A stretch of DNA of 64,000 nucleotides from Kineococcus endophyticus (GTDB lineage: Bacteria; Actinomycetota; Actinomycetes; Actinomycetales; Kineococcaceae): NCBI RefSeq assembly GCF_040796495.1, contig NZ_JBFNQN010000011.1, forward strand, positions 124,001-188,000, in the 5' to 3' direction. The translations under genes and the position numbers were made by a program. The notes beneath the pieces are model-generated. The model did not search any database. It worked only from the letters and a program-made list of their open reading frames with translations, and had not been told where the DNA came from. Below, in pieces: positions 21,553 to 24,756 of this stretch (positions within the stretch are counted from its first letter, which is position 1; each line of letters begins with the position of its first letter).

Positions 21553-22377
21553 TTGATCCTCGAGGGCGTGCGGCGCGCGGACGGTTCGCCCGTCGACGTC
21601 GTCACGTCCGGCGCCGGGCCGGGGCTCGTCCTCGTCCACGGCGCCCGGCCCGCGGCCGACTACGGCAAGCTCGCCGACCGGCTCGCGGCCCGCTTCACCG
21701 TGCACCGCTACGACCGGGAGCAGACCGGCCGGGACGGGGCGGGCTACGCCGTGGCCGACGACGTCGCCCTGCTCGGTGCGGTCCTCACGCGCACGGGGGC
21801 CCGGCTCGTCCTCGGCCACGGGCTCGGGGGGCTCGTCGCGCTGCTGGCCACGGCCGGGCTGCTCGACCGGTGCGTCGACCGCGTCGCCGTCTACGACGCC
21901 GTCCTGCCCATCGACGGGTCGGTGCCGGAGGAAGCGCTGGAGCAGGCCGCCCGGGCGCTCGCGACGAACGCCCCCGAGCTGGCGCTGGCCCACCTGGACC
22001 GGCACCTGCGGACGTCCTCGCTGCAGGCCGTGGCCCGCACCGAGCGCGTCCAGCGGCTCCTCGGCGGTGTGCTCGCCCGTACCGAGTGGGGACGCTCCAC
22101 GGCCGCCCGGCTGCCGCAGGTGCTCGCCGAGACGCGCGCCGGTCTGCAGTTCGACGGGCCCGCCGACGTCTACGCCGACCTGCCGGCGCGCGCCCTGCTG
22201 CTCACGGGGGAGAAGTCCCCGGCGTTCTTCGGCGCCGCCGCACACGCGATGGCCGCCGCCGTCCCGACCGCGACGGCCCTGGTGGCCGGTGGGTGCGGCC
22301 ACGACTCCCTGCTGCGGGCGGCGCGCCGTTGCGTCACCCCGCTCGAGACGTTCCTCGGCGGGGACACGCTGTTCTGA
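21553..22377 (+). CDS. Alpha/beta hydrolase-fold protein lacking the nucleophile serine
   Basis: A 274-residue alpha/beta-hydrolase homologue. The oxyanion strand LVLVHGARPAADY and a late GGCGHDSLL with the catalytic-type His are clear. The nucleophile elbow, normally GxSxG, reads GHGLGG (in RLVLGHGLGGLVALL), so Ser is replaced by Gly. The fold is otherwise intact, so this is probably a non-catalytic or cofactor-free-oxygenase-like member rather than a decayed gene. The TTG at 21553 is used because it follows the guaB1 stop by four bases; GTG 21568 is an alternative. Co-transcription with guaB1 is likely. Confidence 0.78.
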   Translation: MILEGVRRADGSPVDVVTSGAGPGLVLVHGARPAADYGKLADRLAARFTVHRYDREQTGRDGAGYAVADDVALLGAVLTRTGARLVLGHGLGGLVALLATAGLLDRCVDRVAVYDAVLPIDGSVPEEALEQAARALATNAPELALAHLDRHLRTSSLQAVARTERVQRLLGGVLARTEWGRSTAARLPQVLAETRAGLQFDGPADVYADLPARALLLTGEKSPAFFGAAAHAMAAAVPTATALVAGGCGHDSLLRAARRCVTPLETFLGGDTLF

Positions 22378-24604
22378 GGCGCGGCGACCCCGCTCCCGCC
22401 GTCAGCGGGAGGAACCGACGAGGGTCCCCAGGAAGCCCGTCACCGACAGGACGACCGCACCCGAGAAGGTGCCGCTGTCCCAGTGCGCTCCGGACAGGTT
22501 GGTCAGCAGCAGGGTCGCCCCGCGGAACGTCGCCCCGCGCAGGTCCGCGCCGTTGAGGTTCGCGAGGGTCAGGGTGGTGCGGTCCAGGACCGCCCCGCGC
22601 AGGTCCGAGCCCGAGAGGTTCGCGCCGGTGAGGTCGCTCCCCGCGAGGACCGCTCCCCGCAGGTCGCGGCCGCTGAGGTTCACCCCGGACAGGCTGCACC
22701 CGTCCAGCCGTGCCCCGGACAGGTCCCGGGCACCGGCGCGGGCCCGCGCGCAGTCCGCGCCGGCGCTCTTCGTGGGGCTGGCGGTGGGACCGGCGGTCGG
22801 GCTCGTCGTGGGGGTGCGGGTCGGGCTCGCTGTCGGGCTGGTGCTGGTCGGGCTCGCGGTCGGGGTGCGGGTCGGGCTGGTGGTGGGGCTGGTGGTGGGC
22901 GTGCCGGTCGGGGTCGACGTGGGCGTCGGGGCGCTCGTCGGGGTGGTGGGCGTCGCGCTCGGGGCGGACGTCGGTGCCGAGGTGGGGGCGCTGGTGGGTG
23001 CCGTGGTGGGCGCGGTGGTGGGCGCGGCCGTCGGTGCGGTGGTGGGTGCGGCGGTGGGTGCGGGGGTGGGGGCCGACGTGGGGCGGCCGGTCGGGGCGGC
23101 GGGCGTCCCGGCCGGAGCCGCCACCACCGTCCCCACCACCGCCCGAGGGGGTGCCCGACGGGCTGCTCGGGGTCGGAGAGGGCGTGCCGGAGGGGGTGCC
23201 CGCGGGGGTGGGCGCGGGGGTGGGCGCAGGGGTGCCCGCGGACGACGAACCGCCGGACGGCGCGGCCCCCGTGGACGCGCCCGCACCGCTGAGGGTCGTC
23301 AGCGGGCGGAAGGGGTCGGCCCCCGCCCGGGGCGTCCACGTGGAGGCCGGGTCGGCCGGGACGCCAGGAGCGGTCGGGGTGCCCGGGGAGACGGGGGCCG
23401 TGGCGAGCGTGCTGGTGGGCGGCGGGGCCGCAGGAGTGGGGGCCGTCGACGCGCTGTCGACCGCGGCCTGCGCCACCTGGGCGGGCAGCACGTCGGCGAC
23501 GGCCCCGGCGGCCACGGCACCGGTGCCGACCCCGAGCGAGGCCGTCAGGACGGCCCCGAGCAGGTGCCCGCCGGCCGTCTGCGCGGCCGCGGACAGCCCG
23601 GAGGCCGCCTGCGCCGGTGCGGAACCCACCCCGGGCAGGGACGCGAGCAGCGTCGTCGGTCCGGCGACGAAGCGCAGCCGGCCGATCCCGACGCCGAGCA
23701 GCGCACGGACGACGTCGGGGTCGAACTGCGCTCCGGCGCAACGGGTCAGCTCGGCCCGCGCCTGCTCGGCCGACATCGGCTTCTTGTAGGAGCGGGCCGA
23801 GGTGATCACGTCGTAGGTGTCCGCGACGGCGATGACACGCGCCGCGAGGGAGATCCCGGTGCCGGCCAGACCCGTCGGGTAGCCCTGCCCGTCCCAGCGC
23901 TCGTGGTGCTGCACGACCCCGTCCAGCCAGTCGCCCAGCCAGTCCCGCAACGGTTCCACGAGGTGCTCGCCGTGGGCCGGGTGCTGCTGAAGGCAGGCCC
24001 ACTCCTCGGCGGTGGGGCGGCTGGCCTTGTTGATGATCTCGACGGGGACGTGCACCTTGCCGACGTCGTGCAGCAGCGCCACCCAGCTGAGCCGGTCGAC
24101 GTCCTGCGACGACAGGCCCATCTCGCGGCCGATGAGGGCGGCGTACGCCTGGACGCGCTCGGCGTGGGCGCGCGTGCGGGCGTCGTGGCTGGCCAGCGTG
24201 CCGACGAGGTGCAGCAGCCAGTCGCCCGCCCCGCCGGTCGCGGCGCGGGGGAGCGCTGAGGGGGACCACGTCCGGCGCGCCACGGCGAAGCGGCTCGGGA
24301 CCTTGTCCGGCACGACGAGGCTCAGTCGCAGCAGGGCCGACAGCGGGACGAGGCGCCGCAGCCAGCGGGTCAGGCCGAACAGGACGGCGCTCGACCCGGT
24401 GACGACGAGGACCAGCCACGCGAGCCCGGGCAGACCCACGCGGTCGGCGGGGAGCCACCGGGCGGCCGCGGCCCCCAGGGCGAGGGCGACGAGGACCGGT
24501 CCGAAGGTCGCCGTGAGGCGGACCAGGACCGCCAGCACCGGACGGGAACGCCAGCGGACGGCCGGCGCCTGTCGGCCGTAGCTCTGGGTGGGTCCTGCGG
24601 TCAC
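22334..24604 (-). CDS. HD-GYP domain membrane protein (cyclic-di-GMP phosphodiesterase-like), frameshifted near 23135
   Basis: Two N-terminal membrane segments (LVRLTATFGPVLVALALGAA and AWLVLVVTGSSAVLFGL) precede an HD-GYP domain: HDARTRAHAERVQAYAALIG, LLHDVGKVHVP near residue 178, HHERWDGQGYP near 238, and DTYDVITSARSYKK. All metal-binding and GYP signatures are intact, so c-di-GMP or a related nucleotide is the likely substrate. A Pro/Thr/Ser-rich region starts near residue 395. From about 23135 the open frame continues to 22334 as Arg/His-rich sequence that looks out of phase, while the plus-one frame encodes a Pro/Thr tail and pentapeptide repeats. The start is uncertain: GTG 24604 has AGGA upstream, and GTG 24658 is possible. 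Confidence 0.75.
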   Translation of the reverse strand: MTAGPTQSYGRQAPAVRWRSRPVLAVLVRLTATFGPVLVALALGAAAARWLPADRVGLPGLAWLVLVVTGSSAVLFGLTRWLRRLVPLSALLRLSLVVPDKVPSRFAVARRTWSPSALPRAATGGAGDWLLHLVGTLASHDARTRAHAERVQAYAALIGREMGLSSQDVDRLSWVALLHDVGKVHVPVEIINKASRPTAEEWACLQQHPAHGEHLVEPLRDWLGDWLDGVVQHHERWDGQGYPTGLAGTGISLAARVIAVADTYDVITSARSYKKPMSAEQARAELTRCAGAQFDPDVVRALLGVGIGRLRFVAGPTTLLASLPGVGSAPAQAASGLSAAAQTAGGHLLGAVLTASLGVGTGAVAAGAVADVLPAQVAQAAVDSASTAPTPAAPPPTSTLATAPVSPGTPTAPGVPADPASTWTPRAGADPFRPLTTLSGAGASTGAAPSGGSSSAGTPAPTPAPTPAGTPSGTPSPTPSSPSGTPSGGGGDGGGGSGRDARRPDRPPHVGPHPRTHRRTHHRTDGRAHHRAHHGTHQRPHLGTDVRPERDAHHPDERPDAHVDPDRHAHHQPHHQPDPHPDREPDQHQPDSEPDPHPHDEPDRRSHRQPHEERRRGLRAGPRRCPGPVRGTAGRVQPVRGEPQRPRPAGSGPRGERPHRREPLGLGPARGGPGPHHPDPREPQRRGPARGDVPRGDPAADQPVRSALGQRHLLGCGRPVGDGLPGDPRRFLPLTAGAGSPRLRTACPRRGTSRAG
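22393..22411. terminator. Short hairpin at the convergent end of two genes
   Basis: CTCCCGC and GCGGGAG arms around CGTCA, lying between the hydrolase stop at 22377 and the end of the pentapeptide-repeat frame at 22402. It can serve transcripts from both sides. Confidence 0.5.
22402..23139 (-). CDS. Pro/Thr-rich linker plus pentapeptide-repeat domain (3' part of a frameshifted HD-GYP gene, or a separate small gene)
   Basis: This frame reads as real protein: an APTTAP/TPTTSP-type low-complexity stretch of about 110 residues, then pentapeptide repeats (DLSGARLDGCSLSGVNLSGRDL, then ADLRGATFRGATL) forming a right-handed quadrilateral helix. It lies one base off the frame of the HD-GYP gene upstream. 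The HD-GYP frame turns into Arg/His-rich nonsense exactly where this one becomes sensible, near a GGGG run (complement of 23131-23134). The simplest reading is one protein split by a single-base insertion. The GTG at 23139 is only a nominal start and has no ribosome site. Confidence 0.6.
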   Translation of the reverse strand: MVGTVVAAPAGTPAAPTGRPTSAPTPAPTAAPTTAPTAAPTTAPTTAPTSAPTSAPTSAPSATPTTPTSAPTPTSTPTGTPTTSPTTSPTRTPTASPTSTSPTASPTRTPTTSPTAGPTASPTKSAGADCARARAGARDLSGARLDGCSLSGVNLSGRDLRGAVLAGSDLTGANLSGSDLRGAVLDRTTLTLANLNGADLRGATFRGATLLLTNLSGAHWDSGTFSGAVVLSVTGFLGTLVGSSR

Positions 24605-24756
24605 GGTCCTGTCTCGGCGCGGTGGGCGCCCTCCTGAGCCGTTCCCGGGACGTTTCACCCGCCCGGGGGCGCGCGGGCCGGTGCCGCTGCGCCGTCCGTG
24701 GACGCCGGGCCTGGGCGGGCCCGGTCCCGGAACGTGCCACTACCATCGCTATCGCC

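What the first reader, a model, noticed from the sequence alone, without database searches (positions are those of the whole stretch)
22334..23160. HD-GYP protein and pentapeptide-repeat tail separated by a one-base frame difference
The HD-GYP frame turns to Arg/His nonsense near 23135, exactly where the plus-one frame turns into a Pro/Thr linker and then pentapeptide repeats. Joining them by dropping one base from the GGGG run gives a coherent protein: two membrane helices, HD-GYP, disordered linker, pentapeptide repeats. A c-di-GMP phosphodiesterase fused to a DNA-mimic-like repeat domain would be unusual. The split could be mutation, sequencing error or a slippage switch.
Basis: partly seen in the sequence, partly recalled or inferred. 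Interest (0 to 1): 0.6.

Follow-up and report, generated by a model that had tools for sequence, protein, structure and literature searches.

The report
Membrane signalling enzyme with repeat cap
A bacterial membrane enzyme predicted to break down a signalling molecule carries a stalk and a coiled repeat domain that probably sits outside the cell; in this genome a one-base frame break splits it, while relatives keep the same protein in one piece.

Summary
On the minus strand an HD-GYP frame (likely start 24604) loses coding character at 23117-23147, and the neighbouring frame takes over with a Pro/Thr stalk and a pentapeptide-repeat cap ending at 22402.

The fused protein is real. Fourteen other genomes hold HD-GYP, stalk and cap in one open frame: G009 in the genus and 13 in another family of the order. 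The cap models as a pentapeptide solenoid. A cysteine pair is invariant in the 11 caps aligned. In six pairs of relatives the cap is more constrained than the stalk in five.

A hydrophobic segment follows HD-GYP at a near-constant distance in 31 proteins. The cap is therefore probably outside the membrane, and a DNA-mimic role is unlikely; this is prediction.

The break is most likely a sequencing or assembly error, or a recent mutation, in GC-rich repeat DNA. It is the only break called in 384 kb of this assembly, and the window cap shows no decay. Only reads can separate error from mutation. A programmed slip is not supported.

Verdict: a new architecture of a known enzyme class, with an ordinary break.

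The parts
23148..24604 (-). HD-GYP gene, first frame, from the likely GTG start to the break
24482..24538 (-). hydrophobic segment 1
   Evidence: Kyte-Doolittle mean 2.12 over 19 residues
24371..24427 (-). hydrophobic segment 2, followed by a positively charged stretch
   Evidence: Kyte-Doolittle mean 1.99; four K/R in the next 15 residues
23711..24196 (-). HD-GYP domain (Pfam HD_5)
   Evidence: E 8.9e-36; HD dyad and HHE/DG/GYP residues invariant in 8 of 8 aligned copies
23507..23563 (-). hydrophobic segment 3, after HD-GYP
   Evidence: Kyte-Doolittle mean 1.74; same position in 31 proteins
23148..23506 (-). stalk, part in the first frame (Pro/Ser/Thr/Gly/Ala rich)
23117..23147 (-). interval in which the coding frame changes; holds the four-base G run at 23131-23134
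22777..23116 (-). stalk, part in the neighbouring frame (Pro/Thr/Ala/Ser rich)
22405..22776 (-). pentapeptide-repeat cap; cysteine codons at 22750-22752 and 22696-22698
   Evidence: Pfam Pentapeptide E 4.1e-31; model and fold search; cysteines invariant in the 11 caps aligned
22402..22404 (-). stop codon of the cap frame
22334..23116 (-). out-of-frame Arg/His-rich remainder of the first frame with its stop; overlaps the end of the neighbouring plus-strand gene

Best explanation
The locus encodes one protein: two membrane helices, a cytoplasmic HD-GYP cyclic-dinucleotide phosphodiesterase domain, a third membrane helix, and a disordered stalk that carries a cysteine-paired pentapeptide-repeat solenoid outside the membrane. 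Inferred mechanism: cap and stalk reach into or across the cell wall; ligand binding, anchoring or tension there is passed through helix 3 to HD-GYP and changes the local level of c-di-GMP. In this assembly a one-base frame difference in the GC-rich stalk DNA uncouples the cap. It is a local lesion (sequencing or assembly error about 0.55, recent mutation about 0.38), not a programmed event. Shown: the break, the unbroken relatives, the domains, constraint on the cap in close relatives. Inferred: location outside the membrane, sensing, enzyme activity and substrate, cause of the break.
For: Unbroken fusion in G009, in G262 and G146 and in 13 of the 16 matching f9 genomes, G262 and G146 included. 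HD-GYP residues invariant in 8 of 8 copies. Cap pN/pS below that of the stalk in five of six pairs. The window cap is closer than the G009 cap to each of nine f9 caps, mean 0.404 against 0.370, so it shows no decay. Cysteine pair. Solenoid model, pLDDT 89.3; fold matches to pentapeptide proteins. Segment 3 at +109 to +129 residues in 31 proteins. 71 GGDEF matches over the cut-off in this genome. Only break called in 384 kb. Other assemblies have stalks cut by contig ends (L112, L117, L132, L137, L198) or holding an N run (L138).
Against: Window against G009: cap pN 0.41 and pS 0.45, so no constraint visible in that pair (core 0.17 and 0.42). One of six pairs has a higher cap than stalk ratio (0.67 against 0.63), and the pairs share members. 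Segment 3 is only moderately hydrophobic: 27 of 31 reach 1.6, its apparent insertion energy is +2.2 to +3.0 kcal/mol in eight proteins, and charges around it (0-2 K/R before, 0-9 in the 60 residues after) do not fix its orientation. The core model is poor, pLDDT 58. The closest solved relative by sequence is a 3'3'-cGAMP phosphodiesterase, so the substrate is open.
Confidence: 0.8

Rival explanations
1. The break is a real recent mutation: the strain makes an uncapped HD-GYP protein with an Arg/His-rich out-of-frame tail, functionally like relatives that lack the cap.
For: Six of eight other genus copies reach a stop without a cap, so the enzyme can do without one. Frame breaks are otherwise rare in this assembly. 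A degraded copy exists in G001.
Against: The cap frame keeps its GC pattern and has not drifted. Stalk DNA is awkward in several other assemblies.
Confidence: 0.35
2. Slippage switch or programmed frameshift: cells make capped and uncapped forms from one gene.
For: A short G run and repeat-rich DNA lie in the interval. Capped and uncapped proteins both exist in the genus.
Against: 14 of 14 complete capped relatives need no shift. The run is only four G. No known shift signal was recognised by eye; none was searched for by tool.
Confidence: 0.04
3. Two separate genes: an HD-GYP gene and an independent pentapeptide gene that happens to follow it.
For: The second frame has a GTG-started ORF of 294 aa from 23286.
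Against: The part of that ORF before the break has no coding character. Relatives are fused.
Confidence: 0.02
4. The cap is a cytoplasmic DNA mimic of the Qnr/MfpA type coupled to c-di-GMP breakdown.
For: Same general fold; MfpA and Qnr are among the Foldseek matches, e.g. 2bm4_A, TMq 0.60.
Against: Scores far below the equivalog cut-offs: MfpA 34.5 against 360, Qnr 39.9 against 240. Predicted outside the membrane, with a conserved cysteine pair.
Confidence: 0.03

Closest known systems
HdgA of Streptomyces venezuelae (6TM-HD-GYP; PMC6205966, passages read)
   Same: Membrane-bound HD-GYP protein; found only in the membrane fraction in that paper
   Different: Six membrane helices by its table; no stalk or cap is mentioned in the passages read
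HD-GYP phosphodiesterases of known structure (4r8z, 4mcw, 5z7c, 9rbz)
   Same: Same catalytic domain by profile match, E 1.7e-39 to 7e-23
   Different: The match covers the HD-GYP domain only; 5z7c is named a 3'3'-cGAMP enzyme, so substrate does not follow from the match
Pentapeptide-repeat proteins NP275 (2j8i_A) and the lumenal Rfr-domain protein (2f3l)
   Same: Solenoid fold (2j8i_A TMq 0.69, rmsd 1.9); 2f3l is called lumenal in its title, a non-cytoplasmic precedent
   Different: Matched as single-domain entries; no signalling enzyme is named in their titles
Cyanobacterial Ser/Thr kinases with C-terminal pentapeptide repeats (PMC1262709 and PMC2877116, passages read)
   Same: A signalling enzyme fused to pentapeptide repeats
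   Different: Another enzyme class and another phylum; no HD-GYP
Uncapped HD-GYP relatives of the same family, e.g. L005, L008, L012 and the own-genome paralogue L002
   Same: Same two segments, HD-GYP, segment 3 and low-complexity stalk
   Different: No pentapeptide cap; some tails end in a short stretch with two cysteines

Membership tests
HD-GYP phosphodiesterase | HD_5 / HD domain match above the curated cut-off | tested here: met
   123.6 bits against 27.2
HD-GYP phosphodiesterase | HD dyad and HHExxDGxGYP motif (motif recalled) | tested here: met
   Invariant in 8 of 8 aligned copies; one relative, L209, has Asn for Asp
HD-GYP phosphodiesterase | Hydrolysis of c-di-GMP | not testable with these tools
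   Needs an assay
Pentapeptide-repeat protein | PF00805 match above the cut-off | tested here: met
   106.6 bits against 20.2 for the second-frame ORF
Pentapeptide-repeat protein | Right-handed solenoid fold | tested here: met
   Model pLDDT 89.3; 49 PDB matches at E 0.001 or better, many of them pentapeptide proteins
Qnr/MfpA DNA-mimic proteins | NCBIfam equivalog cut-off | tested here: not met
   MfpA 34.5 against 360; Qnr 39.9 against 240
Qnr/MfpA DNA-mimic proteins | Binding to DNA gyrase | not testable with these tools
   Needs an assay
Programmed frameshift gene | Frame change conserved among orthologues | tested here: not met
   14 of 14 complete capped relatives are in one frame
Receptor with an outside sensory part | Stalk and cap outside the membrane | tested here: inconclusive
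   Third hydrophobic segment in 31 proteins (27 reach 1.6), but charges do not fix its orientation

The most novel reading that the evidence does not exclude
A pentapeptide-repeat solenoid, held by a cysteine pair on a wall-spanning disordered stalk outside the membrane, is an input module for cyclic-dinucleotide breakdown in this order; the stalk evolves freely while cap and enzyme are kept.
Probability: 0.4. Interest if true: 0.65.

Novelty: new variant of a known kind. Interest (0 to 1): 0.5.

Why it matters
Pentapeptide repeats are best known (recalled) as cytoplasmic DNA mimics or as proteins of unknown role. A conserved form outside the membrane and tied to a cyclic-dinucleotide enzyme would give the fold a testable function, sensing or anchoring at the cell wall, and would give a signal input to HD-GYP proteins that carry no recognised sensory domain. 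The frame break matters mainly as a warning: read as it stands, the gene gives a product with a spurious Arg/His tail, and the cap is lost from view.

Tried and rejected
Genome-contig scan with the HD-GYP part: 232 confirmed relatives, 80 kept, no record of the genus recognised in the titles. A first motif scan of those 80 ORFs failed its own positive control and was replaced by a period-5 score that gave 16 of 16 for six positive controls. The 80 reached at most 15, in a hydrophobic stretch. The score is not specific: it also gave 16 to L147, whose tail is a VSVP low-complexity repeat.

Gene neighbourhood: 17 window proteins (the predicted set lacked the genes at 20-24.5 kb) against ten loci gave four matches, two of them to a chemoreceptor-like gene (name recalled). 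No help in deciding orthology.

Tree of 15 cores: 7 of 12 inner branches are open, so gain or loss of the cap cannot be placed.

Cap search in the order: 25 rows; besides the window and G009, nine were opened from this search, two with HD-GYP; one more (G011) had been seen; the others were not opened. Class search: 24 of 394 genomes; of 29 loci checked none shows the HD-GYP motif in any frame. This negative is soft: about 1500 bases or fewer upstream were held, and the motif misses variants such as that of L209.

Core structure model: poor, not used. The fitted organism name is recall only.

Papers: no held paper contains both 'HD-GYP' and 'pentapeptide repeat'. Other searches; there I saw listings with abstract starts. 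Passages were read of PMC6205966, PMC1262709, PMC10333796 and PMC2877116. No paper was read whole. Most subscription papers are not in that library.

Slips: one search failed on a file name, on coordinates. In one search the G528 row carried extra upstream residues into the alignment; the identities use aligned columns only. Against it I now give the score of the second frame throughout, the pair that goes against cap constraint, the weak points of segment 3 and the loci not opened. The overall confidence is set at 0.8, and the interest score is now 0.5 instead of 0.48.
Full report
WHAT IS THERE. On the minus strand a frame opens at 24658 and runs to 22334, 774 aa. The likely start is GTG 24604, where the residues match the GPTQNY N-terminus of relatives. 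The frame encodes two hydrophobic segments, an HD_5 domain (E 8.9e-36) whose HD dyad and HHE/DG/GYP residues are invariant in 8 of 8 aligned copies, a third hydrophobic segment and a Pro/Ser/Thr/Gly stalk. At 23117-23147 coding character passes to the neighbouring frame: one switch scores 93.7, against -108.0 for the first frame throughout and -11.6 for the second frame throughout. The second frame continues the stalk and ends in a pentapeptide cap (E 4.1e-31) with its stop at 22402-22404. The G run at 23131-23134 lies inside the interval, but the data do not single it out.

IS IT MORE THAN CHANCE. A six-frame model with a frameshift penalty, run over the window and 16 stretches of 20 kb of the same assembly (384 kb, 354,811 coding bases), called one frame break, in this gene. 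The caller found 66 of 80 simulated one-base deletions. The break is real in the assembly, and such breaks are rare in the part sampled (384 kb of 5.04 Mb).

RELATIVES IN THE GENUS. 8 of 11 genomes match: ten full copies and one degraded copy in G001. Two have a cap: the window (broken) and G009, where HD-GYP, stalk and cap form one 717-residue frame. Of the other eight, six reach a stop without a cap and two (L007, L010) are cut by the end of the sequence held.

RELATIVES IN THE ORDER. 17 of 99 genomes match the core alignment. Fourteen tail-bearing loci outside the genus were read: low-complexity tails, no pentapeptide cap, two cut short (L132, L137). Five shorter matches had no tail stretch to read. 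A cap alignment matched 23 of 396 order genomes. Of nine loci opened, two (G262, G146) hold the whole architecture in one frame. In their family 16 of 221 genomes match four caps. Thirteen carry HD-GYP in the same open frame: 12 by motif, and L209, seen by eye, with HHEQWNGAGYP. L198 is cut inside the stalk; L210 and L211 show no HD-GYP. With G009, 14 genomes other than the window's hold the unbroken fusion.

THE CAP. The 11 caps aligned share two cysteines and 13 other invariant positions. Five further caps were left out of that alignment (L198, L206-L209); each also shows two cysteines near its start, closer together in L208 and L209. In six pairs of f9 relatives pN/pS for the cap is 0.29, 0.37, 0.34, 0.26, 0.67, 0.49; for the core 0.23, 0.30, 0.24, 0.14, 0.48, 0.33; for the stalk 1.00, 0.65, 0.61, 0.73, 0.63, 0.65. 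So the cap is under more constraint than the stalk in five of six; the pairs share members and the stalk alignments are short (53-103 codons). Window against G009 shows no constraint on the cap (pN 0.41, pS 0.45; core 0.17 and 0.42), perhaps because of distance. The window cap is closer than the G009 cap to each of nine f9 caps (mean 0.404 against 0.370), so it has not decayed. AlphaFold gives a solenoid with an N-terminal helix (pLDDT 89.3, two-sequence alignment). Foldseek returns synthetic solenoids and pentapeptide proteins; NP275 2j8i_A has TMq 0.69.

TOPOLOGY. In the 31 proteins measured the best hydrophobic segment after HD-GYP lies 109-129 residues past the HHE motif; 27 of 31 reach a Kyte-Doolittle mean of 1.6 (range 1.34-2.25; a best segment is always returned). 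The stretch after segment 2 carries one to five K/R in 15 residues. With HD-GYP in the cytoplasm, where its substrate is, the stalk and cap fall outside, and a cysteine pair fits an oxidising place. Charges around segment 3 do not decide its direction, and its insertion energy is only moderate. This step is prediction.

THE BREAK. The cap frame shows no decay, and the DNA is GC-rich repeat; two weaker stretches like it occur elsewhere in the genome. In other assemblies the sequence held ends inside such a tail in five cases: L112 and L117 at their contig ends, L132, L137 and L198 inferred from short loci. One tail has an N run (L138), after which it reads out of frame. I put sequencing or assembly error at about 0.55, recent real mutation at about 0.38, and the rest on a slip or separate genes. 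No reads were at hand.

MECHANISM. Most likely a wall- or surface-coupled phosphodiesterase: the cap meets a ligand or anchors in the wall, the stalk spans the distance, and helix 3 passes the state to HD-GYP. The genome has 71 GGDEF matches over the cut-off, so c-di-GMP signalling is plausible. The closest solved relative is a 3'3'-cGAMP enzyme, followed by two other phosphodiesterase-type entries, so the substrate is open. Activity, location and ligand are inferred.

AGAINST WHAT IS KNOWN. HD-GYP and pentapeptide membership tests by sequence are met; the MfpA and Qnr cut-offs are not. HdgA of Streptomyces is a membrane HD-GYP protein, listed as 6TM-HD-GYP. Kinases with C-terminal pentapeptide repeats are described in cyanobacteria. 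No held paper contains both 'HD-GYP' and 'pentapeptide repeat'. The genus is probably Kineococcus: the G004 contig of 4,761,183 bases has the length I recall for the K. radiotolerans chromosome. That is recall; one search found no record.

Noticed in passing
L184 (G012:C1:2624968-2625285): A small ORF with a signal-peptide-like start followed by about 20 near-perfect GASLT repeats: a possible secreted pentapeptide-repeat protein in the same order.
   Followed up: no
G000, whole genome: 72 GGDEF matches, 71 over the Pfam cut-off, in a 5.04 Mb genome: a very large c-di-GMP repertoire.
   Followed up: no
L012, L008, L006 (tails of uncapped relatives): Tails end in short stretches with two cysteines in place of a pentapeptide cap; perhaps a minimal cap.
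   Followed up: no
L147 and L130 (G018, G093): HD-GYP tails made of VSVP-type five-residue low-complexity repeats, not pentapeptide-family repeats.
   Followed up: no
L009 and L011 (G001:C2:31470-32300): A degraded HD-GYP copy with stops on a 174.6 kb contig.
   Followed up: no
L208 and L209 (G411, G408): Longer caps ending in a CPSGD..SS..CW stretch; L209 has Asn for Asp in the HHExxDG motif.
   Followed up: no
L206 and L207 (G488, G483): The cap is followed by a second Pro/Ala-rich low-complexity stretch.
   Followed up: no
L103 (G009:C1:5351677-5351823): A run of identical CGPDL five-residue repeats in a short frame; a DNA tandem repeat that mimics a pentapeptide match.
   Followed up: no
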